From NCBI GenBank assembly GCA_032358255.1, contig JAULBX010029445.1, positions 1 through 22,003 of the forward strand: DNA of 22,003 bases, read 5' to 3'. The notes beneath the pieces are model-generated. The model did not search any database. It saw only the letters and a program-made list of their open reading frames with translations, and had not been told where the DNA came from. The DNA comes from Heterotrichella gracilis (taxonomy: Eukaryota; Sar; Xanthophyceae; Tribonematales; Xanthonemataceae). Shown here in pieces: positions 97-20,912 of the stretch (position 1 is the first letter of the stretch; the number at the start of each line of letters is the position of its first letter). The position numbers were made by a program, and so were the translations under genes.

Positions 97-3000
97 CTGC
101 AGGGTCGCATCAGGCGCGTTGCATGGCGCCAGGTCCTGATACGCCACCTCAGTCACTGCGGCTGAGGAGGTGGATTCTACCGAAGGAGAACGGCGCAGGC
201 TGGAGGAGCGATCATACTCCTGAAACAAGGGGGAATAAGGCTGAAGGAAGTTGAGTTCACTTATTTACATTCATTGGCGCCGCATGTGCAAGAGTGCCTG
301 CTAACCTGGCTGTTGAGGGGGAAAAAAGTAAATAGAAAATAGGAGGGTGAGGGGCTGTCCTTGTGGCGCTTATTCACACATGCATATAAATTGTTGTATA
401 CAAATCGGGGTTATGGAGCGGAGGAGGATGATGTCAAATCCAAGCCTCCTCCCTTCACACCCACCACCACCACCGCCACCACCACCACCACCAACGACAA
501 CAACTTCATCAACATCACACCACCACCACCACCGCCACCAAACCATCACCACCTCCACCACCACCACCGCCACCACACCACCACCACCGCACCTGCAACG
601 ATGATGCGCGCGATCCTATCGGGCTGGAACCCCCCGAAGATGCCATGCTGCTTGGCTCCGAGGCCGCTGGGCCGCCGCCGCGGGGGGCAGGGCTGGCGGG
701 AGTGGGGGCGGGTGCGCGCTTGAGTGATCGAGCAGGGGAGGGGGGTGGCAGGGATCCCTGGCGCTGGAAGGGTCGAGAGTTTTTTTAGGGGGTGACTTGC
801 AAAGGGAAATATGTGGTTTCAAACTGGTTGGACGCATGTTTGTAAAAAACCATAGAACTTCCAACCCAGTGCGGTTGCAATTACACAGCTTGCCAAAAAA
901 ATAGATGATGCTGGCATGCAGATGCTAAATACCATTTTGTGATATCCAGCTTTGCTTCGTCAATGAACCACCTCCCACAACTCACCAGCGGTGGGCGCCT
1001 GCCAGTGAAGGGGCTGGCCTGCCCGCTGCGGCCCCCGCCACCATCCCCCCACTCGCCCCACGCGTCCGAGCGATCGCTCAGCGCAGGCCCCTCCCCTGGT
1101 GCAAGGTCCAGAATGCCGAGCTCAGCCGCCACTGCCGATAGGGAGGGCACCGGGCTGGCCCGCCGCATGGGGGGGGAGGGGAATACTGCGCTGGTGGATC
1201 GTCCTAGGCCTGCATGGTGGAAGGAGTGAGGGGAGTGGTGTGAGAAAGCTGATTGGGTGATGACCAGCGCAGATGCAAGATTTGACACCTGTTGCCGGGA
1301 TAATGTGGGTCTTCACATGCCCCTGCTCCAGCCCCTCCCCCTCCCTCCGCTTCAGTTGCTCCAACTTTTGCCCCACCTGGCCCTCCACCCTCCACCCTTA
1401 ATTTTGAACCCTGCACCTCAAAACCCTGCACTGTCCCCACCTGCAATCGCGCCCATGCGTGCAGGCTCCGAGTGGGTTCTCGTGAGAGCTGCGTTGGCGG
1501 AAAGCACCCTCCTTGCCTCCTGCCTCCTCCGCTTGAGCTGCTCCAGCTTCTGCCCCACCTTGTCTATCGAGGAGAGGGCGGTGGCTAGCTGGCTGTCGGC
1601 TTCGGCTGCGGGAGGGGAAGTTAGGGTTTTAGGGTTTGGTGTTTAGGGTTTTGTCCCACTTTGTGTACTGCGGAGAGGGCGGTGGGCAGCTGGCTATCAG
1701 CGGCGGCTGCGGCGCAGGGGAGTAAGGGTTTGAAATTTACTTTTGGAATTTCTAGTTTGGAGTGCGTGTATTTTGAAACCAATTCACAGGCACCATTTCA
1801 GAGTCATAACTCTTGACCTACTCCCACTGCCATGCCAGCATGGCGCCAACCCACCCACTCCATCGCCACCACCACCGCCACCACCACCACCACCACAACA
1901 ACAACAACAACAACAACAACCACACACCTTGCATGCCCTCCAGCGATGTCGGCGACCGCTGCAGCATAGTCCCAGGGGTAAAATTAAGCGAAAGGGAGGT
2001 AGCCAAGGGCGCATCCGGCCCTCGGCCCCCCCTGGCCGCCGCCCCCCTCTCCCCCCTCAACGCCGCGAGCGCGGGTGGTGGGGGGTGGGGTGGTGGGGGG
2101 TCCTCGAACAGCACCTTTTTGGCACTCTTGGCGGAGGTGGGGGTGGAGGTGGGGCTAGTGGAGTCTGGAAGGGGGTTGGGGGTCAGGGTTCAGGCATTTC
2201 ATCAATGGTGATGAGAATATAGCAGGTGGGTGGATGTCAATGATAGTCTATCAAGAACATTTTAAAATAATTTTAGTATTAAGAACATGATGAAATCCCA
2301 ATTATATGTGAATTAATGTTTAAGAACATTATGAAATCCCAATGCTATATGGATTTGCACCCGGTATACAATCCAGCATAGGGCCAGATTACAACTGGGA
2401 ATTCAAAAGCATATCTCTCTTTGTGAAGACAAGGGAAAGGAGCTGCAGGCGTGGCATGCTACAAAACGAAGAATGTCAAAATTTGGTGCAGCATGAGGCC
2501 TTAAACGCAAACACTGAAACCCTAATTCTGCTCACCGTGCCCCTCCCCTTCCTCCCCATGCATGCGCACACTCGACCCCCTGCTAGCGATACGCGACAGA
2601 ACCCTAAACCCTACATTCAAAAACCTACAAACCTAAGCGCTCACCGTGTCCCTCCCCCTCCTCTGCCTGCGTGCGCACACTCAACCCCCTGCCAGGGATG
2701 CGCGATAGTAGCGCGGGGCGAAGGGGAGGTGCAGAGCCCGCATGCCGCCCCGAGGGACCCGCCACCTCCCCACCACCACCACCACCACCACCAGCCATAC
2801 CCGCATGCTGCTGTCCCTCCCACACCCCACCCCCGCTTCGCCCCGCGACAGGGGAGGAATTATACGAGCTGTGGGCGGAGGAAAACTGGCTGCTGCTGCT
2901 GGCGCTGTTTGCCCTATCCAAGGGTATTTGGAGCGGCAGGGGCCCCCGGCGGGTGGGGTCTACATCCTGGGGGTGGGTGGTGTGGGGGCTGGGGGGGGAG

Positions 3001-6000
3001 GAGGGCAGGGAGGGGCGGCGGGTGGGGGATGCCCCCCCCGGAGGCCCCACTGCAGTGCTCCCGCTGGAATGGGAGGTGGGGGAGGGGGGCTGCGATGCCA
3101 GGAGTTGCTCCAATGAGGTAGTGCGGGGAGGGGGGAGGGCTGAAATGATGGCTGGGTCGCCACCCCCCACCCCCCCACCCCCGCCCCGGGGCATGTGCGG
3201 CGCAAGGGGGGCAGGGGGGTGGGGCAGGCTGTCGTAGGGGAGGTCGCGGAAAGAGGAGGTGGCGGGGAGGTAAATCGCGATTCCCGCCATGACGGTGGTT
3301 TTATCGCTGAGGGGGCGCGCCCCGGTGTTGGTGGTGGGGGCGTTGGTCCCCACCACCCCCAGCCCCTGCCCCTCCTCGCCCGGTGGGGGGTGGGGGGTGG
3401 GGGTTTTGTGCGAGGGGGCGCGTGAGAAGGAGGGGGTGTGCCTGGCGGCTGTGGGGCTGGTGGTGGCGGTGGAGGGGCGTGCGATGTTGGGCTGCGAGGG
3501 GAGGGGGTGAAATCAATGTTGATTACTATTTTAGTTTTATTACATTTTCTATTCTTGCTTGGATGTACAATGCCCTCCATAGTCAAGTGACGCCAACGCA
3601 GCTCTCCACACCCTATCACCACCACCACCACATGACACCCATTGCAAGGCACCCCACAACACATCCCCCGCCAGTGCGTAGCACCACCATTATTTTATTA
3701 TATTTTATTATATTTTACCACACTACCACCCCGCCACCATGACTGCCGCACTTGCATCTCATCATGAAAAAAAGCCCTCCACAGGCAAGTACAGCCAACG
3801 CCAGCTCAACACACCAAATCGCCACCACCACCACCACCACCACCACCACCACCACCACCACCCCACTCACATGGTACTCCACAAACCCCTCCTCGCCAAT
3901 GGTGGGTGGGGGGGTGGGAGAGGCCCACCGCAAGTGCACCTCCCGCAGCGTAGAGTCTGGTAGATGGCACCCATTCAGCAGGCCCTGCACACAAGAGCAC
4001 CACAAGAGGACGTTAAACCATGTTTAACCATGTTGTTGTTAGGTGGGCTGACGTCGGCCTTTCAGTTTTTTTTGCAATGTCGCGGTGGTGGCGGTGGTGG
4101 TGGTGCTCTAGTCATTCCTAGCACTGCCAACATGGTGGATGGCAGAACCCACCACCACCACCACTGCCACCTCTATCGCAACCGCAACCAGCCCATCCGC
4201 CACCAACACCGCCACCGCCACCGCCACCACCACCATCCACTACCGTCGCAGCCACCCTCATCATCACCACCCAAACCTCCATCACCATGTCAATAAAGAA
4301 TACTCAATAAATATTATTTATTAAATAATATTACCTCCAGCGCCTGGCTTGGCACCGCCTGCCTCAGCGCCGCCATGCCTTCAAGCGCCGCCACACGCAC
4401 CGCCCCTGGCCACTCGGGGGCCAGGCTGCGCGCAAGCAGGCGCACCATGGGCGCAAGGGGGAGCTCCTCCCGCCGGAAGGACAGCGCGGCCTGTGAAGAA
4501 GATAGGCAACGATTTATTTGTTTATCAACTTGATACTTTATTTTTGAAATATGGACAATAAAGAGCAAAATCGGCAGGAGGAGCTCACGGCGGTACTGCC
4601 TGGGACCTTATAATAAGAATATCAATGATAATAACACAAATAAATGGAAGCAAGGAATGCCACGCCCTTCACATACACCACCCCCCACACCTCACCAGTG
4701 TGCACCACCCCCACCACCCACTCCACCCCCCACCCTACACCAACATGCACCACCCCAACACCCCCACACCACACACCCCACCACCCACCAGCGTGCACAG
4801 CCCCGCAAGCTCCTCCTGCACCCGCCACCCCCCACCCCCCGCCCCCTCCGCCGCAGCCGCCAAATACTCCATGAGCGCGGGGGGGCGCACCGCCTGCATC
4901 AGCGCAGCCACCACCCGCACCGCAGCCTGGCGCACCACCACCTTGTTATCGCCCAGCTTGGCCACGACTGCGGGGAGAGTCGTCCTGAGAAAACAACGGA
5001 ATTTTCTTAGTCAGGCCCAAGAGAATTCAAAGGAACATAATCTATTCCACGGCGGAATAAAGCATGGTGTGTGTAATTAAATGCGCCGGGCTACCACTTG
5101 AAGGAGGTCCTTTATCTCACACCTAGAACCTTGTTCTAACATGAATCCACCGCAAAATCTACACCCCCGAGTGTGTTTTGACATGGTGTTACAAAGCAGG
5201 CAAGGCCTCTATTTGACCTAAACCCTAGGCATGACCCCCAAAACCCAACTTTGCCGCACTGCCACCACCCCCACCCCAAGCAGCGCCGAATCGCGACGAC
5301 CCCTCCACAAGCGACACCAGGAACGCATGCAACCTACTGCGCGCTGGGATTCGACCCTAACCCCTGTATTGCCCCAAACCAAATGTTGCTGCCACGTACC
5401 CTAGGCAGGGCCGGATTTCCGCCCCGATCTTTCCCGCCAGCTCCGCCAGAATCTGCATGGTCGACAGCGAAATCTTGAAGTTGGGATCCCCAACCAGCGA
5501 CACCAGGAACGCAACAAAGGAGGGCAGCGCGGGGCGTAGCGCCGCCACATCCCGCAGTTGGGTTACCCGCGTGTACAGCTGATCAATTGCTGCGGCTCGC
5601 ACCTGGGAGGGGCATTGGGGGGTGGTTAGGTGCGGGGTTTTGCCAGGGTTCGTGCTTTGGACGCAAAGGCTCTGCCTATAAGTGGGGTATGGGAGGGTGC
5701 GAAGGCTTCACAGGTAGGCAGCGCAGGGCGCGGCGCCGCCACATCCCGTAGCTGATGTAGGAGCAGAGCTGGTCGGTGGCTGCCCCATGCACTTGGGTGC
5801 ACTGGGGGGCAGGGGTGTGGGTGCGGGTGCGGATGGGTGGGATTAGGAAATGCAGGGGTTCGCCTAGGTGTGCTTTCAATGCCAAGGTCATGCTTCTGCT
5901 TGTTAAAAAAGTACTGGATGCTGCTGTGAGTGCCCTTATGGCCGAGGGAAGAGAACTCTTGCCAAGTCCCGTAAACCCTTGCTGGCCAGCAGGCGATGCT

Positions 6001-6221
6001 GTTGGCTGTTTCAGAACAGGAGCGCGCTGCGTGTGCCCAGATAGGGGGATGCTACTGGCCCGCAATGCCAAGCGTGTTGGGTGGTTGAGTTGCACTGTTA
6101 CCTGCCAGTTGCCAATCTCACGCAGGTCGCACACAGTTTGGAGGGGCACAAACCCAAACTCCAGCTCCTGCCCGCCATACCCCTGGCTGTTTATCTGCGG
6201 CATGGGAAGTGGGCTCAGCAT
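97..6221 (-). CDS. TOG-domain (crescerin/TOGARAM-like) microtubule-binding protein, 5' part, 11 exons
   Basis: Exons in transcript order: 6221-6102, 5602-5400, 4984-4789, 4490-4335, 3984-3871, 3491-2645, 2164-1928, 1605-1441, 1209-986, 763-593, 219-97. All are bounded by AG/GT and phases agree at every junction; 852 codons, no stop, so the gene continues beyond position 1. Residues about 18-260 form one array of HEAT-type helices typical of a TOG domain: NWQVRAAAIDQL, FVAFLVSLVGDPNFKISLST, VVAKLGDNKVVVRQAAVRVV. Residues about 264-810 are a disordered Ser/Pro/Gly linker with a short charged helix near 640-670 (VGQKLEQLKRRRQEARRVL). Exon 11 (VAYQDLAPCNAPDATLQ) looks like the start of a second TOG domain. 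In known families TOG domains bind tubulin; crescerins act in cilia. The family-level call is firm; crescerin rather than CLASP is an inference from the domain layout. The ATG at 6221 is the first in frame, but an upstream exon is possible. Exon 6 (847 nt) may hide an intron. Confidence 0.8.
220..592 (-). other. TOG-gene intron 10 with (CCA)n / (GGT)n tract at its 5' end
   Basis: The intron runs from donor CAG|GTGCGG at 592 to acceptor TTTCAG at 220. Interrupted CCA triplets at about 461-590 read as (GGT)n on the sense strand right behind the donor. The other part (220-460) is unique sequence with no coding frame. Confidence 0.7.
1341..1378 (-). repeat. Partial copy of TOG-gene exon 8 interior, in intron 8
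   Basis: Matches 1524-1565 and on the sense strand again encodes VGQKLEQLKRR. It lies downstream of exon 8, with no proper acceptor. Confidence 0.7.
1621..1652. repeat. Telomere-like TTTAGGG tract next to the exon 8 acceptor
   Basis: Imperfect TTTAGGG/TTTTAGGG units. On the sense (minus) strand they read CCCTAAA immediately 5' of the polypyrimidine tract and acceptor of exon 8. Confidence 0.75.
1653..1732 (-). repeat. Copy of TOG-gene exon 8 5' end with acceptor, in intron 7
   Basis: Diverged copy of about 1544-1630, including its own acceptor CGCCGCAG and the start of the exon, in which a TGA interrupts the frame. A TTTAGGG-type tract (CCCTAAA on the sense strand) at 1621-1652 separates it from the true acceptor. 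Confidence 0.8.
2531..2599 (-). repeat. Copy of TOG-gene exon 6 3' end with donor, in intron 6
   Basis: Aligns with 2640-2708, including the donor context CACG|GTGAGC in both copies. CCCTAAACCCTA at about 2600-2613 lies between them (TTTAGGG on the sense strand). The shared donor helps fix the exon 6 end at 2645. Confidence 0.85.
3821..3862. repeat. (CAC)n microsatellite behind TOG exon 5 donor
   Basis: About 14 near-perfect triplets; (GTG)n on the sense strand, starting a few bases behind donor CAT|GTGAGT at 3870. Confidence 0.9.
4082..4275. repeat. Opposed (GGT)n and (CCA)n tracts in TOG intron 4
   Basis: On the plus strand, G-rich (GGT)n at 4082-4105 and C-rich CCA/CCG triplets at about 4144-4275. 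Read on the sense strand, the intron has GGT repeats behind the exon 4 donor and ACC repeats before the exon 5 acceptor, so the two could pair in the transcript. Confidence 0.75.
4571..4605 (-). repeat. Weak copy of TOG exon 4 5' end, in intron 3
   Basis: On the sense strand, after CCCAG it reads QYRRELLLP, resembling SFRREELPL at the start of exon 4. Short and diverged, so chance similarity cannot be excluded. Confidence 0.4.
5305..5332 (-). repeat. Short copy of TOG exon 2 interior, in intron 2
   Basis: The 19-base core AGCGACACCAGGAACGCA is shared with exon 2 near 5497-5515. It lies downstream of exon 2 in the transcript. Confidence 0.6.
5716..5794 (-). repeat. Copy of TOG exon 2 5' end, in intron 1
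   Basis: Diverged copy of about 5519-5603. On the sense strand it matches the exon from its first codons through the GGGATGTGGCGGCGC block, but small indels break the frame. The flanking intron sequence (5610-5700 against 5800-5900) is also similar, so the duplication included intron. Confidence 0.75.
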
Positions 6222-7558: not shown

Positions 7559-10500
7559 ATGCTCGCAGCCACGGTCACAACCCTGCTGCTGCTGCACCAT
7601 GCAGGTATGCGAATGCCTCCAGCATTGTCCCACAGGGCCACCCAACGTGCAACTTCAGCTGCTGTGCTGCTTGCATTGGCCTATATGGCTACATGCATCT
7701 TGCATGCATCCTTGCGCGTGGTTGACACACACCACCCACCTGTGCCGCAGCTGCGCTGGTGGACTCGTATGACTACTCAATGATCTTCGCGCCATCCCGG
7801 GATGCTGGCATAAAGTTTGAAGGTGAGGGGACCGCTGCACGCGATGCATGCACGCTCTTTAGGGTTTTAGGGTCACTGGCGCCATGCCTACAGTGCACCT
7901 TCTCCCTCTCAGGCGTTGGACTGAAGAGCCAGACTAAACTCCCAACCTTTTGCATGCATTTTACCAACCCTGTTTTTACCTCTGTGCGCACATGGTGTAA
8001 AAGTGGGCCCAAACCTACATGCCTTTCCCCCACTTGCATTGCTCTGCAAGACCTCGGGCCCCACGCAAGCAACAGCTTCGGTTGGTGGGAGCTGAAATCG
8101 AATGGTTGGTTAATGCTGCGCCCATGTGCCCATGCTAAGGCGCCGGCTGTAGGACAGCGGGCCGTGATTCCCGTTTTCATGCAGGCAGGCAGGCCGCCCC
8201 AACTCTCAGGTTATAACCCTACACCCTAGGCCTGCCGCCCCTGCTGCGTTGGGCCCAATACTGCCAGTTATGGCAGGCATCCACTGCTTCTTATTTCATC
8301 CATTTACCAAATACGTTTACATTTTGTAACTACCCATTCCCGCAGACCTACCTGGCTTCACCCGAAGCGTGTATGAGCGGGACCATGCACTCATCACCCC
8401 AGAGAGCAGGGTGTGGGCGGGCATGCCGGGATGGTGGGTGCACTGTGCGCCTGTGCAATTTCCTGTGCTGGGCGGGCATGCCGGGATGGTGCATATGCTT
8501 AGTTGGGTTAGTTGCCGCCTTTGCTGCAAAGCCCTTTAACCCTAAACCCTAAGTTGACTCATCACACCAGAGGGCAGGGTGTGGGCGGGCATGCAGGGAT
8601 GGTGCGTTGACTCAGTTGCCTAACCATATGCCTATGCGTGCGTGTCTGGCATTACCCTTGATCCCAAATCTTAGGTTGGACCAGTACCAGGGTGTGGCGG
8701 GCACGTCAGGATGGCGCCTGTGCATGTGCATGTCCATATGCATGTGGATGTGCATGTGTGCCTGTGCATGTGTTTAGGGTACAAACTAGGAGAATTTAGG
8801 GTACAAACTAGGAGAATGCAAGAATTCACGCCAGAATGACGAGGCCTAGGTGCAGGCCCGGCTCTCTACCCTAAACCGTAAAGCTAAACCCTAAACCCTC
8901 AAACCCCGCCCCCCTGCAGGCCCGGCTCTCTCACAGCCCACTTCATATCCGCTGCCAAGGGCGCCAACTTTGCCATGTACCTAGCTGATATGAAGGCAAA
9001 CGCAACCACAGCACCCGCAGCGGCGGGGGTAGAACGGTGCGGCGGGCAAGACCACACACAGGCACAGCAATTGCACAGTAATCAGGAAGTAGCAATGTCT
9101 GTGCACTTCATCATCAGCGGTAGGACGGTGTGGTTTGGGGCCAGTTCATGTTATCCCATAGGATAAATGACACAGTAATTTTAACAAGAAAACTGAGACA
9201 TCATATCCAGATTGACTATCTGAACCAGATGTGCATAATTGACACCATTCATTGGCGGCTGCTTGCAGGTTTGTGCAGGTTCTTGACGGGAGCATCACCG
9301 TCCCCGGGACTGACAACATCCGGGTCAACCTACACGCAAACGACTTTGTGTACTTCCCCCCAGACAGCCTCAACAGGTGGGTGTGATGAAAAAATGAAAA
9401 AAAATGTTCAAAAACATATCAATAACTTTAATTGGTGGGTGCAATAGGCAGTAAACAAATGGAGAATATATTATCTGCTCTGCCCTTGAACAGTTCCTGT
9501 GATCCTCGTGGCTGGACAGTGCTCATAACGCCATGCATTGGCTGCTTTTATTGTGAATCTTGTAATATATAGTAAGACAACGCAATCTTCGTTTGGCGCG
9601 GGATGAGAGGGTGGAACCCTACCCTGAACCCTCCCTAAACCCTAAACCTTAATCCCCCTGCCACCCGTAGCTTCAGTTCTGGTGGCGGTGCTGGGCCCTT
9701 AAACCCTGAACTCCTAACCCTAAACCCCAAACCCTAAATTGCTACCCTAAACTCTAACCCCCCTGCCCCCCACAGTTTCAGCTCTGGTGGCGGTGCTGGC
9801 CTGCTGGTGTACGAGCGCAAGTATGCTGTCAAGGTGGGTGTAGGGTTTAGGGTTTTAGGGTTTAGGGTGCTGGCCTGATGGTGTACGTGGGCAAGTATGC
9901 TGGCAAGGTGGGTTTAGGGGTATAGGGTTCTGGGTTTAGTGTTTAGGGTTCTAGGGTTTAGGGTTTATGGTGCTGGCCTGCTGGTGTACGAGCGCAAGTA
10001 TGCTGTCAAGGTGGGTGGGGACGGGGAAGGGGCTAAAATACTGGAGTCAGAATGAGTGTGATTGGTGCAGGGTGGCAGGCCCCAGAACCAGTACGGGACC
10101 GTAGATCAGCAGAAACTGCTGCCCTGCGCGGGGTTAGGGGTTTAGGGCTCAAGGTGTTTGGCCTGCGCAAGCTGATGCTACAGGAGAACATGACCGATGA
10201 AAAGTAGGTTTAATCGTCACAACACTGAAGTTAAAATGAGCGTGGTTTATGCAGGGCGGCAGCCCCCGGTACCAGTACGGGAACGTGGATCAGCAGAAAC
10301 TGCTGCCATGCGCGGGGGAGGTGTTTGCCCTGCGTAAGCTGCTGCCTCAGACCGGGGACTATGATTTCAACGTGCACGTCATGGACTTCAAGCCAGGGGA
10401 ATACTTGAACATCAAGGTAGGTTACGTTCTCACTGTATTTGTTGTTAGTCATTTTATTCGCTTTTTCTTGTAGTTGGTTGGTCGCTCAATTGGCATGCAC

Positions 10501-11221
10501 TACATTTTGCACGCAATGGACTTCCTAGCCAGGGAGTATTTCCAGCATCAAGTAGCATCCATCCATTGGGTTTTTTCCCTCTCCATTTATATTGACCTGC
10601 CTTCCCCCATGCCTTCCCCCCTTGTGGTGCACAGAGTACTATTTTTTAGTTCCTTTTATTATTGAAAGCTTTACTAAAATGTATCATTATCCCTCCCCTC
10701 CTCTCCCTGCAGGAGGTCCACTACAACCAGCACGGTCTGCTGCTGCTACAGGGCAAGGGGATCTACAGGCTGGGTGACAAGTGGTAAGCACACAGGAAAC
10801 CCCAACAAACCCTGACATACCTTAGGGAGTACATGTAAATGGGTTGTTTCCTATTGTGCTCATTGCTTTCCTTGCTTGCACGTTGCGTGTGAAGGTACCA
10901 CCACTAGTCTCAAACATACTGAGAAGTTTACTTGGGTTGCATGTAGGGATCCCAGGGGATCAGCATTTTAACCACCTCCAGCACCACCATCAAAGTACCC
11001 CATCCTTTACTTAGTCTACCACCATACCCACTGCTACCCACCGCCACCAACACACAGCCTATATCCACCACCCCTCACCCACATCCAGGTACCCCGTCCA
11101 AGCCGGCGATGCCATTTGGATGGCCCCATACGTGCCCCAGTGGTACGCAGCGCTAGGCGAAACCAGCACTCGCTACGTCATCTACAAGGACACAACCATC
11201 AACCCACTCAGCGACGTATGA
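7559..11221 (+). CDS. UGLYAH: (S)-ureidoglycine aminohydrolase (bicupin, Mn-dependent), 9 exons, complete
   Basis: Exons: 7559-7604, 7751-7822, 8346-8433, 8920-9036, 9269-9376, 9776-9833, 10255-10416, 10713-10783, 11089-11221; all junctions are GT-AG and phase-consistent, giving 284 aa, close to plant enzymes (about 300). The enzyme family releases ammonia from (S)-ureidoglycine to give (S)-ureidoglycolate in purine (allantoin) catabolism. Recognised segments: LPGFTRSVYERDHALITPES, GANFAMYLADM, LLPQTGDYDFNVHVMDFKPG, EVHYNQHGLLLLQGKGIYRL, WYPVQAGDAIWMAPYVPQWY. The C-terminal cupin keeps E218, H220, H224 and Q258, in the same spacing as the four Mn ligands of the Arabidopsis enzyme. The first exon encodes MLAATVTTLLLLHHA, a signal peptide, fitting the ER location known in plants. 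The start is the ATG at 7559: its 46-nt exon joins in phase 1 to the conserved second exon. Introns are crowded with partial copies of exons 3, 4, 6 and 7. Confidence 0.94.
8467..8714 (+). repeat. Three diverged copies of the UGLYAH exon 3 3' end, in intron 3
   Basis: The true exon 3 end (8387-8436, encoding ALITPESRVWAGMPG) recurs at 8467-8492, 8557-8604 and 8680-8714. The middle copy is longest and keeps the GGGATG|GTG donor context. A CCCTAAACCCTAA tract at 8538-8553 precedes it. These could act as decoy or alternative donors. Confidence 0.85.
8851..8867 (+). repeat. Short copy of the UGLYAH exon 4 acceptor
   Basis: TGCAGGCCCGGCTCTCT is identical to the true exon 4 acceptor and first bases at 8915-8931. 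The CCCTAAA tract at about 8868-8901 lies between them. Confidence 0.8.
8868..8901 (+). repeat. Telomere-like CCCTAAA tract before UGLYAH exon 4
   Basis: Four imperfect CCCTAAA units directly upstream of the pyrimidine tract and acceptor of exon 4. Confidence 0.8.
9661..9696 (+). repeat. Copy of the UGLYAH exon 6 5' end with acceptor, in intron 5
   Basis: CCCGTAG then a near match to exon 6 (9771-9800, FSSGGGAG). CCCTAAA-type tracts lie on both sides (about 9632-9655 and 9700-9758). Confidence 0.85.
9866..10017 (+). repeat. Two copies of the UGLYAH exon 6 3' end with donor, in intron 6
   Basis: The true end (9794-9839, GLLVYERKYAVK plus donor AAG|GTGGGT) recurs at 9866-9913 (diverged) and 9969-10017 (almost identical, keeping YERKYAVK and the donor). 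Each is preceded by a TTTAGGG-type tract (9840-9866; about 9914-9968). A transcript could use any of the three donors. Confidence 0.9.
10041..10183 (+). repeat. Copy of the UGLYAH exon 7 5' half, split by a telomere-like insert
   Basis: Matches 10224-10360, including intron flank, acceptor and exon start (QYGTVDQQKLLPC against QYGNVDQQKLLPC). At about 10130-10150 a TTAGGGGTTTAGGG-containing insert interrupts the copy and brings an in-frame TAG, then homology resumes (LRKL). Not usable as a full exon. Confidence 0.85.
10505..10553 (+). repeat. Degenerate copy of the UGLYAH exon 7 3' end, in intron 7
   Basis: Resembles 10368-10421 (VHVMDFKPGEYLNIK plus donor), with several substitutions and a short indel. 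Confidence 0.7.
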
Positions 11222-11409: not shown

Positions 11410-11514
11410 GCAGCGCTAGGCGAAACCAGCACGCGCCACATCAATTACAAGGACACCGTGTCCTTGATGGTGACCATCAACCCACTCAGCACACCAGTAC
11501 TCGTATTCAGCTAG
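11410..11514 (+). repeat. Downstream copy of the UGLYAH last-exon end
   Basis: Copies 11147-11215 after an acceptor-like ATTGCAG. It is still open: ALGETSTRHINYKDT, then five extra codons, TINPLS and a different ending PVLVFS before TAG at 11512-11514. Either a relic or an alternative terminal exon. It is preceded by a doubled 21-base AATTGGATGTAATTG unit (about 11375-11410) containing TGTAA, the usual green-algal polyadenylation signal. Confidence 0.8.
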
Positions 11515-12823: not shown

Positions 12824-15800
12824 TCACCCACACTTTGGGTAGGCCTCCTTCGCCACCCACACCAGGCTGCACACCCCCTTGGGAGCGCGCTTGCAGTGCG
12901 CGATGATGGGACCCGATAGGGTGTCGTCGTTGAAAGCAGACACCATGCGCCGCACCGCCGGGGTCCCTGCCGGTTCTGGGCCGGTTTTCCAATGCTTGGG
13001 CGGCTCTGCCACATGCACCTGCACAGGGGGAAATACACAGAAAAGGTAAAGCAACTCTTTTTGACAAAGTGTAATGCGCAGTAATATATTTAACGAGAAA
13101 GGAATGGGCCAGGCTGGTAGTCGGCGTTGAAAGCTGACACCATGCGCCGCAAAGTCGGGGTCCCAGCAGACTTTCCAGTGCTTGGGCGGCTCGGCCACGT
13201 GCACTGCGCCAGGAAGAAATACACAATTTGAGAGGGAAAACAAAAAGCAACTCTGTTACAGCAATGTGCAGCGCGCCCAATAGAAGTAAGTCCATAACTA
13301 AAGCAGGCATTTGCCTGTACCCAAAGGCATGTCAGGCATCCCGGGTGCCATGCGCATGCACAAACGCATGGTGTGGTTAGTGCAGCCATGCCCCTCCTAC
13401 GCCGTACACCAACGAGGAGATGCGAGCCTAACCAGGCCTGTTTGGGGGCCAGGTGCGGCATCACACCCCTGCCCTACCTCCTTCAGGGTGCGTGTAAGCC
13501 GCCAGCGCAATCCGGCGCCTTTAGGGTTTCTAGGGTTTGTAGGTTTTCTTGAGGGTTTATAGGTTTTGCGGCATCACACCCCTGCCCTACCTCCTTCAGG
13601 GTGCGTGTAAGCCGCCAGCGCAATCCGGCGCCTGTAGGGTTTCTAGGGTTTGTAGGTTTTCTTGAGGGTGTATAGGTTTCTAGGCTTAGGTTTTGGGGGA
13701 TCGACCCCTGCCCTACCTCCTTCAAGGTGTGCGTCGCCGCCAACGCGACCAGGCCTTTGCCGGTACCCATGGGCATGCCTGGCATTCCGGGTGCCATGCG
13801 CATGCTCAACAAGTATACCTCGACACGCCAACAACCACCCGCCTCCACACCCCCTCTATCCCTTGGCATCCACAGGCACAGAATCACCCCACCGCCATCC
13901 CTCACCCCCTACCTCTTTCAGGGCGTGCGTCGCCGCCAACGCGACCAGGCCTTTGCCAGTACCCACGGGCATGGCGGGCGTCCTGGGTGCCATGCGCATG
14001 TACACCATGTACACAGTGCACTGCGACAGGAGCCGAGAGGCCCCCAGCACCACCGCCGCCTCCAGCCCCTCCACATCTATGTGCAGCGCTAGCACATCCC
14101 GGAAACGCCCCTGCAGATGCGAGGAAATAGATTACGATTCACACGATTGAATTACTATCAGTACACGCTTTGTGTAAATGGAACATTTTTTTTTTGCGTA
14201 TTCAGACGTGCTGCTCCACCAGCCGCTGCCTCCAGCCCCTCCACATCCACATGCAGCGCTAGCACGTCCCGGAAACGCCCCTAAAATGCACAGCGCAATA
14301 CAGTGATTAAGAGTACATATTACTTTTTACAAGGAAACTCGATTTAATCATTTCTTTGCTACAGCCGGGAGGCCCCCAGCACTACAGCCGCCTCCAGCCC
14401 TTCCACATCGACATGCAGCGCCAGAACATCCAGGAAACGGCCCTGCAAGTGTGAGAAAACAGAATGCGATTCAAACGATTTCAATAATAGCAATACATCC
14501 ACTAAGTTAAAAGGATATTTTATCATTCATCGTATACAGCCGAGGGTCCCCCAGCACAACCGCTGCCTCCAGGACCCCTCCACACCCTTTCAGGCTGTGT
14601 AGGGGGTGTGCAAAGCCAGTCCGTTTCCACCTCCTAGTTTTGGAGGGTCCCTACCTCAAAATGTGCATCCAGTGTGGTGACTGGGGTTATCACCACATGT
14701 TGGAAGGTGTGGGCCTTGGCGCCACGCGCTCTCCCTTGCTTCGTGTCGTCTTTCAGGTATACCTTTGCGCTCTTGGAGTCGGCCGTCCAAGCCACCCAGG
14801 CCTCCCCCACCGAATGCGCCACCGCCACAGGCTCCACATGCACCTGCACACATTATGCACTCTTTTGGCAAGGGTTTGATAGGGTGTGGCAAGGGTTTGA
14901 TGAGGATTTATAGGATGGCGCTTGCTTGGATTCGTCATTAAGGAGTGTCCTTGCGGGTTTTGGGGTCGCCCGCCCATGCAACCCAGGCCTCCCCCACCGC
15001 ATGCGCCACCGCCACAGGCTCCACATGCACCTGGGAATGTTGTGCACACTGCCAAGGGATTGGTAGGGGTTTGGTGGGGGTCTAGGAAGGGTTTGGTAAG
15101 GTTTTACGGGAACATGACGCTGCTTGGTCATGTCTCTGGGCAGCCGTTGGGCCAGAGCAGGGTTTGGTAAGGGTTTCTCCAGGGTTTTTATGGCTGGGTT
15201 CAACCCGCCTTACCCTCCCACAGAATCTGTTGGCCACCACCCCCTAGCACAGGCGCCGCTGGTGGGCGGGGTTGGACTCAAAGGCGTGCACCTTTAGGGT
15301 TTAGGGTTTAGGGTTGTGCACATGCACCAAGTGGGTCCAAGGGTCAGAGCAGACAGAGGGGAGGCGACATGAACTGCCAATCCTACCTGGCCAGAGGATC
15401 GATTGGCCACCCTAAACCCTAAACCCTAAACCCAATCATACCTGGCCAGAGGATCGATTGGCCACCCTAAACCCTAAACCCTAAACCCAACGACCCTGGC
15501 CAGATGATCGGTTGGCCATCCCCCCTTGACACAGGCGCCGCTGGTGGGCGGGGCGGGCCTCAAATGCGTGTTTACGGTCTGAGGTTTTGCAGATGAAGGA
15601 TTGGGGTGTCAGCTCCCGGCGACCAGGAAACCCAAGGCAATGCACTATTGGCAGCCAGGGGTGGAGACACAGGGAAAAGCAGGGGAGATTAATGACCAGT
15701 ACCTGCCCGCAGAATCTGTCAGCCACAACCCCTTGGCACAGGCGCCGCTGGTGAAAATGGGGTTGGACTCAAAGAGTGCACGTTTAGGATGTAAGGTTAT

Positions 15801-17973
15801 GCAGATGCAGGATTCATGGTCTCAACTCCCTGAGATGAGGAAATGAACCCAAAACAGTCAGGGGACACAGTAAATATCCCCCGCATGCATTACCTGCCCG
15901 CAGAATCTGTTAGCCACAACCCCTTGGCACAGGCGCCGCTGGTGGGCGGGGTTGGACTCAAAGGCATGCACCGTGTGCCCCATGGCCGCGGCGAAGAGGG
16001 TGAACCAGCCGGTGGTTGCCCCCACATCCACCACCAACCCCGCTGGAAGGTTCAGGAGGGCGCGCTCGGCAGCCTCCCTCAACCCAGGCGCCTGCTCGAA
16101 GGACAAACATGATCAAATGGTGTATTCATCAGAGTAAAAAATGGGTGCACAGGGTGTAATTTACGGGCAGTACAGGTGAGTTAAAACCATCAGGTGGTTG
16201 CCCCCACATCCACCACCAACCCTGCTGGAAGGTTCAGGAGGGCGCGCTCGGCAGCCTCCCTCAACCCCGGCGCCTGCTCGAAAGAAAAACATGATCAAAT
16301 GGTGTATACATCGGAGTAAAAAATGGGTGCACAGGGTGTAATTTACGGGCAGTAAAGGTGAGTTAAAACCATCCGGTGGTTGCCCCCACATCCACCACCA
16401 ACCCTGCTGGAAGGTTCAACAGGGCGCGCTCGGCAGCCTCCCTCAACCCTGGCGCCTGTGGCAGTAAAAAAAAACCAAAACGATTAATAGCAATCCATCT
16501 ATCTGGAATTTGATACGTACGCATGCTGTACGCCAGCAGGCATGCTCATTAAACAGGACGGTCAAATGAGCCAGCCAGTGGTATCGCCCACAACCTAATT
16601 CCCTTGTAGCGACACCACGAATTGGCCTGGGTCATGTACATTCCAGTGGTATTCCCCCCTTGCGTCTCCCATGCCCCTACCCTGAAACCTGGACCTTCTA
16701 TTTTCACCACTCAAACCCTAAACCCTACAACTGGACCCTACCAGCTCCTGCAGCTCCGCCGCATGGGGGCGCGCGTCGTGCGGCTTGCCACGCAGCGACA
16801 CCACGAAACTGGGCTGGGTCCTTGAAAACACCAGAATAATGGCATCCCTACAATTCCCCCTTGCGTCTGTCATGCCACAACCCTAAAACAGGGTCCCTGC
16901 AACACAGGGTTACCACCCCAACCCCAAACCCTTGAAGCCCCACCAGCTCCTGCGGTGCTTTGTGGCGCGCGTCGTGGGGCTTGCCATGCACGACACCACT
17001 GTTCGAGGGTGCAGAGTATAGAGTTTTAGAGTGTGCGGTCTTGCCAGTACACGCATTGACAGTTTGCTGACCGGGGGGTACGCACGAGCCCCACCTCTCC
17101 ACCACACACTTCCTAAAACCCTAAACCTAAAACCCTAAATTAAAAGCCCTACCAGCTCCTGCGGTGCTTTGTGGCGCGGGTCGTGCGGCTTGCCATGCAG
17201 CGACACCACAAAACCGGGCTGGTCCTTGAGAACGCCAGAATAATGGCATCCCTACAATTCCCCCTTGCGTCTGTCATGCCCCAGCCCTAAAACAGGGTCC
17301 CTGCAACACAGGGTTACCACCCCAACCCCAACCTCTTGAAGCCCTACCAGTTCCTGTGGTGCTTTGTGGCGAGCGTCGTGCGTCTTGCCATGCAGCGACA
17401 CCACGAAACTGGGCTGGGTCTTGGAAAACACAAGGGTGACTGCCTCCAAGTTAGTGGTGGCGTTGAGGGGGATGGCGCTGGAGTTGACGGCCGGGCAGGC
17501 GGCCGCCAGGTAGTCTACGCCTGGAGGAAACACGATGGAATTGGTTGATGTAAATAGTGAAATATATGTTAAATACAGTAATCCTTACCTGTCCCTGGCT
17601 GCAGATTGGTGGTGGTGGTGGCGGGTTGGGGCTTCAGCTAGTCCCGCACCTGCCTGTCTAAACCCCAACCCTTACATGCAGTAACCCTGAACCCTACACC
17701 CTAATCCCTACCTGTCCCAGGCTGCAGATTGGAGGTGGAGGTGTTGGTGGTGGGTGGGGGCTCCAGCGAATCCCGCACCTCGCTGTCTAGGGCATCATCA
17801 AACACGCGGCAGGCTCGAGTGCGGCTAAATGCAGCTGCTGCGGTGGTGGGGGGTTGGGCGGCGGCGGCGGTGGGGGTTGGGGTGGCGAGGGAGCACAGCA
17901 TGAGGCACCAGGCTGCCAGTAGATAGGCGGTGTAGGTGGTGTGGGCACATGTGCTTCGGGTGGGTGCGCTCAT
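12824..17973 (-). CDS. FkbM-family methyltransferase-like membrane-anchored protein, 6 exons, complete
   Basis: Exons in transcript order: 17973-17712, 17520-17348, 16091-15894, 14843-14655, 14110-13913, 13018-12824 (stop at 12826-12824). First intron phase 1, the rest phase 0; 404 aa. Residues 16-32 (AYLLAAWCLMLCSLA) are an uncleaved signal anchor or signal peptide. The FkbM methyltransferase domain spans about 146-400: S-adenosylmethionine motif VVDVGATTGWF (165-175), acidic end of the second strand FESNP (E190), then VTTLDAHFEGRFRDVLALHI followed by DVEGLEAAVVLGA (D286, E288, G289), the family's late signature. The acceptor substrate cannot be read from sequence; a sugar or other small O-methylation in the secretory pathway is an inference. 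The gene is convergent to UGLYAH. Every intron contains extra diverged copies of flanking exon borders, so alternative exons are possible. An in-frame upstream extension into His/Thr repeats exists, but a second copy of the MSAPTR start at 18342 supports the ATG at 17973. Confidence 0.85.
13114..13206 (-). repeat. Copy of methyltransferase exon 6 5' end, in intron 5
   Basis: After an acceptor-like GGCGCAG it encodes VHVAEPPKHWK like the true exon 6, then loses the frame through an indel before the MVSAFN block. Confidence 0.85.
13305..13805 (-). repeat. Four copies of methyltransferase exon 5 3' half, in intron 5
   Basis: Copies at 13305-13362, 13466-13520, 13578-13632 and 13705-13805. The last keeps an intact frame and donor (MRMAPGMPGMPMGTGKGLVA, then LAATHTLKE|GTAGGG). 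The two middle copies, part of a 112-bp tandem unit (13456, 13568), keep TLKE|GTAGGG but are shortened. Imperfect CCCTAAA-type tracts (sense strand) precede the repeated units. Confidence 0.88.
13521..13692. repeat. TTTAGGG-type tracts between the exon 5 copies
   Basis: Degenerate TTTAGGGTTTCTAGGG units at about 13521-13560 and 13634-13692, each abutting an exon 5 copy. On the sense (minus) strand they read CCCTAAA, 5' of the copy. Confidence 0.7.
14213..14590 (-). repeat. Three copies of methyltransferase exon 5 5' end, in intron 4
   Basis: Copies at 14213-14283, about 14360-14446 and 14536-14590. The middle one has a good acceptor (CTTGCAG) and an open frame GRFLDVLALHVDVEGLEAAV, then LGASRL and a stop, preserving the FkbM DVEG signature. 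The first also keeps LALHVDVEGLEAA behind a weak TTTTAG. The third is only the inner end. Confidence 0.88.
14915..15031 (-). repeat. Copy of methyltransferase exon 4 5' end, in intron 3
   Basis: After ATTCCCAG it reads VHVEPVAVAHAVGEAWVAWA, one of the clearest copies. Similarity fades beyond DPKTRK. Confidence 0.88.
15210..15782 (-). repeat. Copies of methyltransferase exon 3 3' end, in intron 3
   Basis: Long copies at 15210-15291 (VHAFESNPAHQRRLC then TAG), 15495-15570 (in frame, HAFEARPAHQRRLCQGGMAN) and 15700-15782 (frameshifted, keeps GCGGGCAG|GTACTG donor). Two short copies, 15384-15409 and 15437-15463, form a 54-bp tandem unit with exact CCCTAAACCCTAAACCCTAAA tracts between; on the sense strand TTTAGGG follows each donor. 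Confidence 0.88.
15292..15489. repeat. Telomere-like tracts of both orientations in methyltransferase intron 3
   Basis: TTTAGGG x3 at 15292-15316 and CCCTAAA x3 at about 15410-15432 and 15466-15489. The orientation flips across the exon-copy block, so the tracts form an inverted pair. Confidence 0.9.
16011..16462 (-). repeat. 182-bp tandem repeat containing the head of methyltransferase exon 3
   Basis: Period 182 bp, starts at 16011, 16193 and 16375 (last unit partial). Each unit holds acceptor, APGLREAAERALLNLPAGLV and the VDVGATT start of the SAM motif. In the 16193 unit the next codon is TGA; in the 16375 unit GWF is followed by TAA. Only the 16011 unit continues into the full exon. High identity suggests recent duplication. 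Confidence 0.92.
16607..17343 (-). repeat. Copies of methyltransferase exon 2 3' end and of its intron spacer, in intron 2
   Basis: Exon-end copies at 16607-16633 (short), 16735-16834, 16938-17000 and 17146-17240; the true end is 17348-17425. The 16735-16834 copy is fully open (LVFSRTQPSFVVSLRGKPHD, ending LQEL|GTAGGG), two codons longer than the true exon. The 17146 copy lost one base. A spacer block is duplicated too (16831-16935 and 17236-17343). Confidence 0.88.
17584..17660 (-). repeat. Copy of methyltransferase exon 1 3' end with donor, in intron 1
   Basis: Matches 17706-17790, including donor ACAG|GTAAGG. In the exon frame it has a TAG (GTGCGGGACTAG), so using it as an exon would end translation. 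Confidence 0.88.
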
Positions 17974-18265
17974 TGGGGTGCGGGTGGCGGTGGCGGTGGT
18001 GGTGGTGGTGGTGGTGGTGGTGGCGGTGGTGATTGCGGGTGGCGGGTGGTGGCGGCGGCGGTGGTGGTGGTGGTGGCGGAGCGGTCTGCTTCCCCCTCCC
18101 CTTTCCGTTGCCCTGCCCACACCGTTCCACTCTGGTTGCGGAGCGGGTTGTGGTGGCGGTGATGGTGGTTGTGGTGGGTGGTGGCGATTGCGGGTGATGC
18201 TGGGGGCGGTGGTGGGTGATGCTGGTGGTGGTGGTGGTGGTGGTGGTGGATGGTGGTGGTGCGGT
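17974..18265. repeat. (GGT)n tracts upstream of the methyltransferase start
   Basis: Long GGT/GGC runs at about 17984-18080 and 18150-18255. On the sense (minus) strand they are CCACC repeats in the 5' UTR or promoter. ORFs through them give only His/Thr/Pro or Gly/Val repeats. Confidence 0.85.
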
Positions 18266-18322
18266 GGGGCAAATCAGGCTGCACCAGGCCCGTGCCAGGC
18301 TGTCAGTTTGGGGGGCGCCTGG

Positions 18323-18667: not shown

Positions 18668-19050
18668 TTTAGGGTTTAGGGGTTGTGAGCCTTGGATGTT
18701 CCTGCAAGGCGGATGAGGGTTTTTTAGGGTTGTGGGCTTTAGGGTTTTTCAGGGTTGTGGGCTGTAGGGGTTAGGGTTGTGGCCTTGTGTGTGCCTGCAA
18801 GGGGGGATTAGGGTTGTAGGGTTGTGGGCTTTAGGGTTTAGGGCTTGTGGCCTTGTGTGTGCCTGCAAGGGGGGATTAGGGTTTTAGGGTTGTGGGCTTT
18901 AGGGGTTAGGGGTTGTGGCCTTGTCTGTGCCTGCAAGGGGGGATGAGGGTTTAGGGTTGTGGGCTTTGGGTGTGCCTGTGAAGGGGATTAGAGTTTTAGG
19001 GTTGTGGGCTTGAGGGTTTAGGGATATGGGGTTGGGGTGTGCCTGCTGGG
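18668..19050. repeat. Minisatellite with embedded TTTAGGG motifs
   Basis: About six imperfect units of 45-95 bp, each with GTGCCTGCAAGG, GGGGATTAGGG, TTTTAGGGTTGTGGGCTTTAGG and GGGTT stretches (landmarks at about 18697, 18791, 18861, 18928, 18973, 19037). Not a pure telomere array, so an interstitial minisatellite. Confidence 0.9.
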
Positions 19051-20488
19051 TGGTGAGGCAGAGTCAGTGGGTAGACAAGGGGCCAGCAGGGCATAATGGC
19101 TGGGACACATCGTGGGATGGAGGTGCATGGGAGTGTAGATGCGCAAGCAAGCATCAACATGGCGTTAACCCAGTACTGGAACATGGGGTTGCCCAAGCAT
19201 TACGACGCACAACGGTTTCAGATGAAAAAAGCACCGCCGTTGCTACTCTTGGCAACCAACTGACTGGAGGAAACCCAATATGGACGCATGCAACAGAGGC
19301 TGTTTTCTGCCCGCGGCGTTGTCCTAGACCTGACATGCACGCGTAGTAAGTCAAAGCAGTGGCATGGGTTATTGCGCGTGTGTCTATCTCACCATAGCGG
19401 GTGCTAGTCTGCGAGCTAGCCAGCTGGCATGACAAGCGACGCACGCTTGCATGCATGCATTATCATAAACTCCGCGCATGCTCACGAGCTAAGACATAAC
19501 AACCTAGGAACACAGACTGTACCGATCCTAGACACAGTCAAGGGTGTGATCCTCGGATGGGCATACCGTCAGCGGGCAAACGCCATTCGGTGAGCAGCTG
19601 GATGCAGGCATGCCATGTCTCCTATCCTGTCGAGTCTCCTGTGCGCCCCGGCAACATATATGGGGAGGGATGTATGCAGCTGTGCTTGCTCACAAGCCAC
19701 TGACAAACTGCAGGGGCATTCCGCTTAAATGTGTTCGAGTGGTGTTTTATCAACGTCAGAGCCAGGCGTTCAAATACGAAATATGTCACGTTCATAACGC
19801 AACAGGTGGACCAAAGGCTTGCTTGAACTTCAACTTTCGGTTAGAAGCACGCTGGTGTCAAATTCACTTCAAGCTTCCTTCTCCTCCCAATCGCACCTGT
19901 CAATTGCCTCGTTGTGCCTCATCCCTGCCTCGACCTATTCGAGTGTGCAGTTGCCACGCCACATGAGGTATCGTTGCAGGCTGTGCCATACCGCTCCAGG
20001 GAGTGCCCCGCTTTGATGTCGTTCGGACGGACCTTCCGCCGCCTAGCTCCCTTCAACGTCGCCGTAGCAGTCGGGTAGGTACTGCAGCTGGGTGGTCGCG
20101 TGCATAGACAACTATGCATGCCCCCACACGCATGCATATTGCACTCTAGCACACCCACACGCCCCTGGTGCCACTAAGTACGCAAGTGAGTATCTGCAGT
20201 CCAGCTTAGAAGCCAGCTCAGCATATCTGGGTATGCCTCACCCCAGTTCAAGAGCCATCTCCTATCTGCCACAGTTTCCAGTGTGGCAGATGGTGGCCAA
20301 CCAATCATGCCGCTTACCGCACCCTAGTGCTACCCATCTACCCCGGCGCAAAGTGCAGGTTGTTGTGTAACCGTTAAGTCAGATGCTCTAAACCACGGGT
20401 TTTTTTAGGCACCCACGTGTTCCTCTCATGAGTCGGGAGCCTTGCTTATGCATGCATATACAAGTGCCGGCTCGCCATGCTATCTATA
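19051..20488. promoter_or_regulatory. Second repeat-poor region, between the methyltransferase and the right-hand gene
   Basis: Unique, balanced composition resembling 6222-7558 and, like it, upstream of two divergently oriented genes. ORFs here have no recognisable product. I see no RNA gene or convincing core promoter motif; it may contain first exons of the right-hand gene. Confidence 0.4.
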
Positions 20489-20580
20489 TAGGAAGCGCTG
20501 ACCGCGGTATCATAGGAAACTTAGATCATGGTAGTGTAGGAATTGCTGACCGATGTAAATGGAACCATACATCACGGTAG
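20489..20580 (+). repeat. Doubled block of about 45 bases
   Basis: 20489-20532 and 20539-20580 share the order GGAA, GCTGACCG, GGAA and CA.GGTAG with substitutions. It lies just before the first copy of the triplicated exon head. Confidence 0.6.
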
Positions 20581-20594
20581 CATACGTGCGGTGC

Positions 20595-20912
20595 AGGGGT
20601 GGTGTGGTGGCTGGGCAGCACTTGTTCACCAGAGCCCCTCCGAAAGTACTCGGCAATTTTTATTGCAGTACACCTTTCCCATATTTTTATCTGCTTACAT
20701 ATTATCAATTTTCGGGGTGGAGGGTGGCATGGTGACTGGGCAGTACATGTACCAGGAGCCCCTCCAAAAGTACTGGGCATATATCATTATGTATATCAAT
20801 AGTTATGTTCGTTATTCCCCCCCTCTACTTATGTACATAATTTCTATTTGGGGTGCAGGATGGGCGTGGTGACAGGGCAGTACATGTTCCAGGAGCCCCT
20901 CCGAAAATACTG
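20595..20912 (+). repeat. Triplicated exon head of the right-hand gene
   Basis: Copies at about 20595-20655, 20717-20782 and 20855-20912, sharing GGGCAGYACATGTNCCAGGA and CCCCTCC.AAAGTACT. AT-rich spacers of about 65-75 bases separate them. Confidence 0.85.

What the first reader, a model, noticed from the sequence alone, without database searches (positions are those of the whole stretch)
1341..20912. Introns filled with polarised copies of neighbouring exon borders
In 15 of 23 modelled introns (6/10 TOG gene, 4/8 UGLYAH, 5/5 methyltransferase), plus the UGLYAH 3' flank and the right-hand gene, there are extra partial copies of adjacent exon ends. 3'-end copies lie downstream of the exon, 5'-end copies upstream, usually with the splice site included. 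Copies range from nearly identical to badly decayed, so the process is continuing and is not one event or an assembly doublet. This looks like a mode of intron growth by tandem duplication across splice borders. I know of no named system that matches it.
Basis: partly seen in the sequence, partly recalled or inferred. Interest (0 to 1): 0.88.

Follow-up and report, generated by a model that had tools for sequence, protein, structure and literature searches.

The report
Telomere-patched exon-edge duplications in introns
In an unidentified green alga, many introns have lengthened because short pieces spanning an exon edge were copied next to themselves, often with stray telomere repeats between the copies, as if breaks near splice sites had been patched by repair machinery; this makes one way of intron growth directly testable.

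Summary
With homology- or frame-checked models, 14 of 20 window introns carry a significant copy of a neighbouring exon border (12 of 20 at a stricter score). In nine CCT/chaperonin genes taken blind, 12 of 34 introns do (7 of 34 strict); in one gene picked because it had duplications, 5 of 5. Copies lie on the expected side at 38 of 118 borders against 5 of 82 on the wrong side. They drift neutrally: divergence from the exon is 8-9% at codon positions 1 and 2, 18% at position 3. Introns with copies are longer (median 396 vs 232 nt).

Duplications cross splice borders more often than uniform placement predicts (29 to 1 intron-only).

Best reading: staggered breaks repaired by fill-in, telomere-type filler and end joining; only events spanning a coding edge leave the mRNA unchanged, which forces the polarity. 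The components are known; the splice-border focus with telomere filler looks like a new variant. The mechanism is inferred.

The parts
7559..11221 (+). UGLYAH ((S)-ureidoglycine aminohydrolase) gene, 9 exons: 7559-7604, 7751-7822, 8346-8433, 8920-9036, 9269-9376, 9776-9833, 10255-10416, 10713-10783, 11089-11221
   Evidence: 4e2q E 1.5e-89; 854 homologues at E<=0.001; open frame
1418..6221 (-). TOG/HEAT-domain gene model, 8 exons
   Evidence: One open frame with GT-AG junctions; PF21040 E 1.1e-8 in the N-terminal part
12824..17973 (-). FkbM-type methyltransferase gene, 6 exons
   Evidence: Open frame; PF05050 E 4.6e-11
8557..8607 (+). Copy of UGLYAH exon 3 3' end plus donor to +6 (original 8389-8439)
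   Evidence: 92% identity
8851..8867 (+). Copy of UGLYAH exon 4 5' end with the last 5 intron bases (original 8915-8931)
   Evidence: 17 of 17 identical, 0 of 200 shuffles as good
8868..8914 (+). Filler between the two exon 4 edge copies, CCCTAAA type
   Evidence: 26 of 47 nt in exact telomere units
9639..9694 (+). Copy of UGLYAH exon 6 5' border (original 9744-9799); filler 9695-9743 of CCCTAAA type
   Evidence: 86% identity; filler 30 of 49 nt telomere units
9866..9913 (+). Nearer copy of UGLYAH exon 6 3' border; TTTAGGG-type filler on both sides (9841-9968 apart from the copy)
   Evidence: 79 of 128 nt of 9841-9968 in telomere units
9969..10017 (+). Farther copy of UGLYAH exon 6 3' border, donor to +7 (original 9792-9840)
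   Evidence: 49 of 49 identical
10037..10143 (+). Copy of UGLYAH exon 7 5' border with 34 intron bases (original 10221-10326)
   Evidence: 83%
10508..10555 (+). Decayed copy of UGLYAH exon 7 3' border
   Evidence: 78%, 0 of 200 shuffles as good
11410..11456 (+). Copy of the end of UGLYAH exon 9 beyond the stop codon (original 11147-11193)
   Evidence: 89%
1649..1731 (-). Copy of TOG exon 8 5' border (original 1548-1629); filler about 1630-1648
   Evidence: 78%; filler 16 of 19 nt telomere units
2530..2599 (-). Copy of TOG exon 6 3' border (original 2639-2708)
   Evidence: 84%
5701..5754 (-). Copy of TOG exon 2 5' part (original 5507-5560)
   Evidence: 80%; extends across the border at 70%
1344..1378 (-). 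Copy of TOG exon 8 sequence beyond the stop codon
   Evidence: 89%
3569..3834 (-). The one intron-only duplication (3569-3631 and 3771-3834), TOG intron 5
   Evidence: 81%
17579..17660 (-). Copy of methyltransferase exon 1 3' border (original 17702-17789); telomere-like filler 17661-17701
   Evidence: 82%; 16 of 41 filler nt in exact units
16713..17228 (-). Array of copies of methyltransferase exon 2 3' border (original 17339-17423)
16185..16458 (-). Two 182-base tandem copies of the exon 3 5' border (original starts 16003)
   Evidence: 95%
15207..15798 (-). Copies of the exon 3 3' border, with TTTAGGG-type (sense) repeats among them
   Evidence: 79-90%
14921..15030 (-). Copy of the exon 4 5' border
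   Evidence: 75% over 208 columns
14217..14584 (-). Copies of the exon 5 5' border
13304..13818 (-). Copies of the exon 5 3' border, CCCTAAA-type repeats (sense) between some
13120..13225 (-). Copy of the exon 6 5' border (original 12923-13039)
   Evidence: 76%
20587..20917 (+). Three copies of one segment in the unmodelled right-hand gene (about 20587-20653, 20722-20780, 20849-20917)
   Evidence: 79% and 72.5% pairs

Best explanation
The copies are relics of local tandem duplications made during repair of staggered DNA breaks at or near splice sites. (1) Nicks on the two strands tens to about 200 nt apart leave overhangs covering an exon edge (inferred). (2) Both overhangs are filled in, so the edge exists twice (inferred). 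(3) Before joining, an end is often extended with the alga's telomere repeat; G-rich donors (GTGGGT, GTAGGG) and C-rich acceptor tracts resemble telomere sequence and could prime telomerase (filler and its orientation shown; telomerase inferred). (4) End joining gives edge - filler - edge. (5) Only events spanning a splice border or the stop codon leave the mRNA unchanged, so surviving spare copies of exon 3' ends lie downstream and of 5' ends upstream (logical consequence). (6) The spare copy decays freely (shown) and the intron stays longer (correlation shown). Some cases are plain tandem repeats without filler.
For: Copies at 21 of 59 donors and 17 of 59 acceptors on the expected side, 5 of 82 wrong-side. 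Direct, hardly ever inverted: 36 direct and 0 inverted in the window at E<=1e-6; at looser cut-offs 42 direct and 2 inverted in the window, 38 direct (distance 70-967) and 1 inverted in the seven algal-composition sampled stretches that hold any. Codon-position divergence 53/633, 56/636, 114/633 as expected for a free copy and a constrained exon. Telomere units in 331 of 2753 filler nt, 501 of 15279 other intron nt, 53 of 2659 copy nt, 39 of 16689 exon nt. 17 of 38 fillers hold a whole unit (my count). 21 of 31 introns with a copy hold a unit, 7 of 28 without (p 0.0016). TTTAGGG-sense runs in the 5' half 36 of 43, CCCTAAA-sense in the 3' half 26 of 42. TTTAGGG is the telomere: its 70-mer lies within 7 bases of the start of five contigs and at the very end of C460. 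A telomerase RNA-binding domain is encoded. Introns share telomere repeats between loci and little else (25 of 28 hits).
Against: 21 of 38 fillers hold no whole telomere unit. Orientation is not absolute: 16 of 42 CCCTAAA runs lie in the 5' half, and genome-wide TTTAGGG before acceptor words (221) equals the expected 217 rather than falling below it. 5 of 9 CCT genes and 7 of 14 algal-composition stretches show no duplication at the BLAST cut-off. Acceptor copies have no sharp intron-side end (-2 to -40). One donor copy ends 12 nt inside the exon (L021 exon 3) and one weak one 19 nt inside (C152). In sampled stretches 10 of 38 duplications touch no predicted coding sequence. No empty-site comparison, reads or RNA were available. 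No single step of the repair was observed.
Confidence: 0.6

Rival explanations
1. Ordinary tandem duplication (slippage, unequal exchange) happens everywhere; border copies are those that selection and detection leave visible, and telomere repeats arrive independently.
For: Perfect tandem arrays exist (182-base unit x3 in the methyltransferase gene). Duplications also occur away from predicted coding sequence (10 of 38) and between genes (18668-19046, 21106-21316). Intron-only pairs diverge faster, so some are missed. In CCT genes alone the count is 8 border to 0 intron-only, which is not decisive (0.67^8 = 0.04).
Against: 29 border to 1 intron-only against 33-44% expected (p 9e-5 to 6e-7). 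Donor copies end at +1 to +14 in 12 of 21 (6 of 8 at identity >=90%). Telomere units are concentrated between copies.
Confidence: 0.22
2. Assembly artefact: misjoined reads or uncollapsed haplotypes.
For: Fragmented assembly (903 contigs), no reads available.
Against: Identities 70-100%, indels in 15 of 38 copies, codon-position pattern of long drift; same pattern on independent contigs.
Confidence: 0.03
3. The introns themselves were gained by duplication of an exonic segment (Rogers / Hellsten model).
For: Direct repeats of exon ends inside introns.
Against: In that model the copy of the upstream exon abuts the new 3' splice site; here 18 of 18 donor copies end 58-812 nt before it, and 14 of 18 carry the donor GT followed by further intron.
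Confidence: 0.05
4. A mobile element (introner-like) inserts near splice sites with long target duplications.
For: Edge - insert - edge layout.
Against: 25 of 28 inter-locus intron matches are telomere repeat; 3 others are short and not at borders by any test made. Sample only; no genome-wide repeat library.
Confidence: 0.05
5. The copies are kept for a function, such as spare or decoy splice sites.
For: Splice dinucleotides kept in 14 of 18 donor and 11 of 17 acceptor copies.
Against: Codon positions 1 and 2 diverge alike and indels and stops occur; young copies would keep the dinucleotide anyway.
Confidence: 0.05

Closest known systems
Small tandem duplications from fill-in at staggered breaks by CST / Pol alpha-primase and end joining (PMC8355091; abstract and introduction read). 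Plant paired-nick duplications (recalled: Schiml and Puchta 2016; Vaughn and Bennetzen 2014)
   Same: Short direct duplications next to each other
   Different: Here focused on splice borders and often separated by telomere-type filler; enzymes untested
Interstitial telomeric sequences inserted at double-strand breaks (PMC7215372; 12 of 29 passages shown)
   Same: Short tracts of the species' telomere repeat inside chromosomes; flank duplication at some loci (3 of 66 simple duplications in its Table 5), ascribed there to staggered breaks
   Different: Here duplication of the flank is the main feature and lies at exon edges; that paper found intronic insertions compatible with random placement
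[quoted passage not shown] Hellsten et al. 2011, not held; PMC4974935, 12 of 20 passages shown)
   Same: Duplication involving exonic sequence and splice motifs
   Different: Here existing introns grow; copies do not abut the acceptor
Interstitial telomeric repeats in Chlamydomonas (PMC6549138, passages read)
   Same: Green alga with internal telomere repeats
   Different: That paper suggests chromosome fusion as a source; no link to exon copies in the passages seen
Introner elements of green algae (recalled)
   Same: Large-scale change of introns in algae
   Different: No insert family shared between the sampled loci

Membership tests
Staggered-break tandem duplication | Direct adjacent copies of tens to a few hundred bases | tested here: met
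   few inverted pairs
Staggered-break tandem duplication | Dependence on Ku, CST, Pol alpha-primase | not testable with these tools
   Needs mutants
Telomere-repeat insertion at breaks | Tract matches the species' own telomere repeat | tested here: met
   70-mer at six known contig ends (three further contigs of unknown length), 14-mer at 5629 places against 5 for the reversed control
Telomere-repeat insertion at breaks | Insertion accompanied by changes of the flanks, here duplication | tested here: met
   17 of 38 fillers between copies hold a whole unit; not shown to be one event
Telomere-repeat insertion at breaks | Bases in telomere register at the break; empty orthologous site | tested here: inconclusive
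   Register seen by eye in several junctions, e.g. GGGT followed by TTAGGG after 9913; no control; no relative available
Intron gain by tandem duplication | Copy of upstream exon end abuts the 3' splice site | tested here: not met
   18 of 18 donor copies end 58-812 nt away
Introner or other mobile element | Shared insert sequence between loci | tested here: not met
   25 of 28 inter-locus hits telomere repeat, sample only
Tandem exon duplication | Whole exon copied with constraint on the copy | tested here: not met
   Partial copies; codon positions 1 and 2 at 8.4 and 8.8%, indels in 15 of 38

The most novel reading that the evidence does not exclude
Splice sites in this lineage are repair hot spots because their motifs imitate telomere ends: breaks at G-rich donors and C-rich acceptors are healed by telomerase and filled in as if they were telomeres, which duplicates the exon edge and steadily lengthens introns across the genome.
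Probability: 0.25. Interest if true: 0.85.

Novelty: new variant of a known kind. Interest (0 to 1): 0.62.

Why it matters
How introns lengthen without transposons is hard to observe. Here intermediate states remain legible: young to decayed copies, filler, and an in-built clock from the drifting copy. If the telomere link holds, it joins telomere maintenance, break repair and intron evolution and makes the question testable with paired nicks and repair mutants in laboratory algae.

Tried and rejected
An unsupervised gene finder trained on the window ran away into hundreds of tiny exons and was dropped. A coding score replaced it (at threshold 7 it marks 0.61 of exon and 0.02 of intron positions); by a similar score 28 of 38 duplications in seven stretches touch predicted coding sequence, 21.1 expected, a weak excess. 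My first methyltransferase exon 4 began at a border copy and was corrected. Pfam scans of parts of L018, L023, L016 and L010 gave no match or single domains, too little for models; L021 was modelled because it had duplications and a clear family match, so it is not an unbiased sample. Rejected: mobile element, intron gain, whole-exon duplication, assembly doublet.

Rows dropped before counting: of 65 modelled junctions 59 were kept (20 window, 5 L021, 34 of 40 CCT); six were dropped for frame fit (more than 2 residues off) or low splice score. Two fillers longer than 260 nt (methyltransferase donors 2 and 3) were left out of the coverage figures but are among the 38. The 29-to-1 count of border to intron-only families was made by hand from the lists: window 15, CCT 8, L021 6; copies of copies merged; 3 copies past stop codons counted apart. 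One right-side hit (TOG exon 5 donor) and one wrong-side hit lie in GGT-type simple sequence. Genome-wide word counts include overlapping matches in one array, bacterial contigs, and degenerate telomere words such as TTTCAGG that imitate acceptors.

Literature: ten searches listed no paper whose title or shown start of abstract describes telomere filler between exon-border copies; two searches listed 10 of 18 and 15 of 67 papers. The library lacks most subscription papers.
Full report
SOURCE. The window is a whole 22,003-base contig (C691) of a 68.5-Mb, 903-contig assembly. The assembly also holds what look like bacterial contigs: tRNA synthetase genes in single open frames on C111 and C68 and 35-38% GC stretches of different composition (L011, L012, L026). 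The UGLYAH protein is at most 66% identical to any of the 120 listed homologues, the best of them green algal or unnamed, so the host is an unidentified green alga. The telomere repeat is TTTAGGG: its perfect 70-mer has 11 matches on 9 contigs, within 7 bases of the start of five, at the very end of C460 (length), and at high coordinates of three whose length I do not know. PMC12636532 (passages) gives (TTTAGGG)n for Chlorella and Coccomyxa.

GENE MODELS. UGLYAH: 9 exons, one single-residue gap against PDB 4e2q. TOG-domain gene 8 exons, FkbM methyltransferase 6, each in one open frame. Controls: nine CCT/chaperonin loci found by PF00118 without regard to duplications, and an isopropylmalate synthase gene in L021, one of 16 stretches obtained of 20 asked at fixed contig numbers, modelled because it had duplications. 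59 introns passed the junction filter.

THE OBSERVATION. 42 direct local pairs in the window, none in 20 of 20 shuffles. For each border up to 80 exon nt plus 40 intron nt were aligned to the intron where a copy should lie and to the intron on the other side. Hits (0 of 200 shuffles as good, z>5): donors 21 of 59, acceptors 17 of 59; wrong side 5 of 82. Four of the five wrong-side hits are the other border of a short exon (UGLYAH exon 3; exon 6 twice; L021 exon 2); the fifth matches GGT-type simple sequence in TOG introns 4 and 5. 31 of 59 introns carry a copy: window 14 of 20, CCT 12 of 34, L021 5 of 5; at score >=40 12, 7 and 5 (split by gene counted by hand).

NOT EVERYWHERE. The window is rich: 16.4 direct pairs per 10 kb at E<=1e-6 against 0-15.5 in the 16 sampled stretches. 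None is seen at the BLAST cut-off in 5 of 9 CCT genes or in 7 of 14 algal-composition stretches, though these hold coding-like sequence. Outside modelled genes duplication is only weakly tied to coding sequence.

NEUTRAL RELICS. Exon and copy differ at 53 of 633, 56 of 636 and 114 of 633 sites at codon positions 1, 2, 3: what a freely drifting copy (t everywhere) and a constrained exon (free at position 3) predict, with t near 0.085. 15 of 38 copies have indels and 4 an in-frame stop. Introns with copies are longer, median 396 vs 232 nt, p 5e-5.

POLARITY. A duplication across a donor gives edge-edge-intron; only the first donor preserves the mRNA, so the spare copy lies downstream. At an acceptor the last one must be used, so the spare lies upstream. 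The same filter explains three copies past stop codons (TOG exon 8, UGLYAH exon 9, C418).

BORDER EXCESS. By families, 29 duplications cross or touch a splice border, 3 pass a stop codon, 1 lies wholly inside an intron. Uniform placement of units of the observed lengths among harmless positions predicts 33-44% intron-only; 1 of 30 gives p 9e-5 to 6e-7. Faster divergence of intron-only pairs works against seeing them but at this divergence should not remove most. CCT genes alone (8 to 0) are not decisive. Donor copies end on the intron side at +1 to +14 in 12 of 21 cases, and in 6 of 8 with identity >=90% (+1, +4, +6, +7, +7, +13); five run to the query's end near +40 and two stop inside the exon. 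Acceptor copies show no sharp end.

TELOMERE FILLER. Telomere-unit coverage: 331 of 2753 filler nt, 501 of 15279 other intron nt, 53 of 2659 copy nt, 39 of 16689 exon nt. 17 of 38 fillers hold a whole unit, 21 do not. 21 of 31 introns with a copy contain a unit, 7 of 28 without (p 0.0016). Orientation follows the splice sites: TTTAGGG-sense runs in the 5' half in 36 of 43, CCCTAAA-sense in the 3' half in 26 of 42. Within 60 nt, TTTAGGG lies by donors 11 times and by acceptors never, of 32; CCCTAAA by acceptors 10 times and by donors once, of 20. Genome-wide, of 5629 14-mers, a donor word lies just upstream of 454 in TTTAGGG and 280 in CCCTAAA orientation (116 expected); an acceptor word just downstream of 457 in CCCTAAA and 221 in TTTAGGG orientation (217 expected). 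Donors are G-rich (47% G in +1 to +10) and 21 of 59 read GTRGGG, GTGGGT or GTAGGT.

INTERPRETATION. Direct adjacent copies, telomere-type filler and no shared insert family fit repair of staggered breaks: fill-in, telomere-repeat addition, end joining, then selection. Fill-in by CST/Pol alpha at breaks with 3' overhangs makes small tandem duplications (PMC8355091); telomere repeats enter breaks, sometimes with flank duplication (PMC7215372). The parts of these papers I saw do not describe a focus on splice borders. Whether that focus is mechanistic (telomere-like splice motifs, fragile G-rich sequence, nucleosome linkers) or residual ascertainment is not settled.

NOVELTY. Ten searches listed nothing matching (see Tried and rejected). 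I rate it a new variant of a known kind.

Noticed in passing
G000 genome-wide: 5629 places hold (TTTAGGG)2 against 5 for the reversed control; 834 hold (TTTAGGG)3, so short internal telomere tracts are very common in this assembly.
   Followed up: partly
window 18668-19046: Telomere-derived tandem array with a unit of about 68 bases between genes, upstream of the methyltransferase gene.
   Followed up: no
window 21106-21316: Intergenic tandem array, copies 83 bases apart, of GATGCGCAGCGGGG-like sequence.
   Followed up: no
window 1-92 and 17977-18038: (CCA)n at the left contig end and (GGT)n before the methyltransferase start; the contig may have broken at the microsatellite.
   Followed up: no
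G000 C111, C68; L011, L012, L026: Contigs of bacterial look (single-frame synthetase genes; 35-38% GC), so the assembly is mixed.
   Followed up: partly
L007 2121-2182: Short repeat shared with introns C547.i3 and L021.i1, possibly a dispersed element.
   Followed up: no
sampled algal loci: CpG observed/expected 0.46-0.69 in loci of algal composition against 0.89-1.08 in the low-GC ones, which hints at CpG methylation.
   Followed up: no
C409, C152, C101, C547, C537 versus C902, C418, C395, C487: Genes of one family differ sharply in the presence of duplications; the cause of this patchiness is unknown.
   Followed up: no
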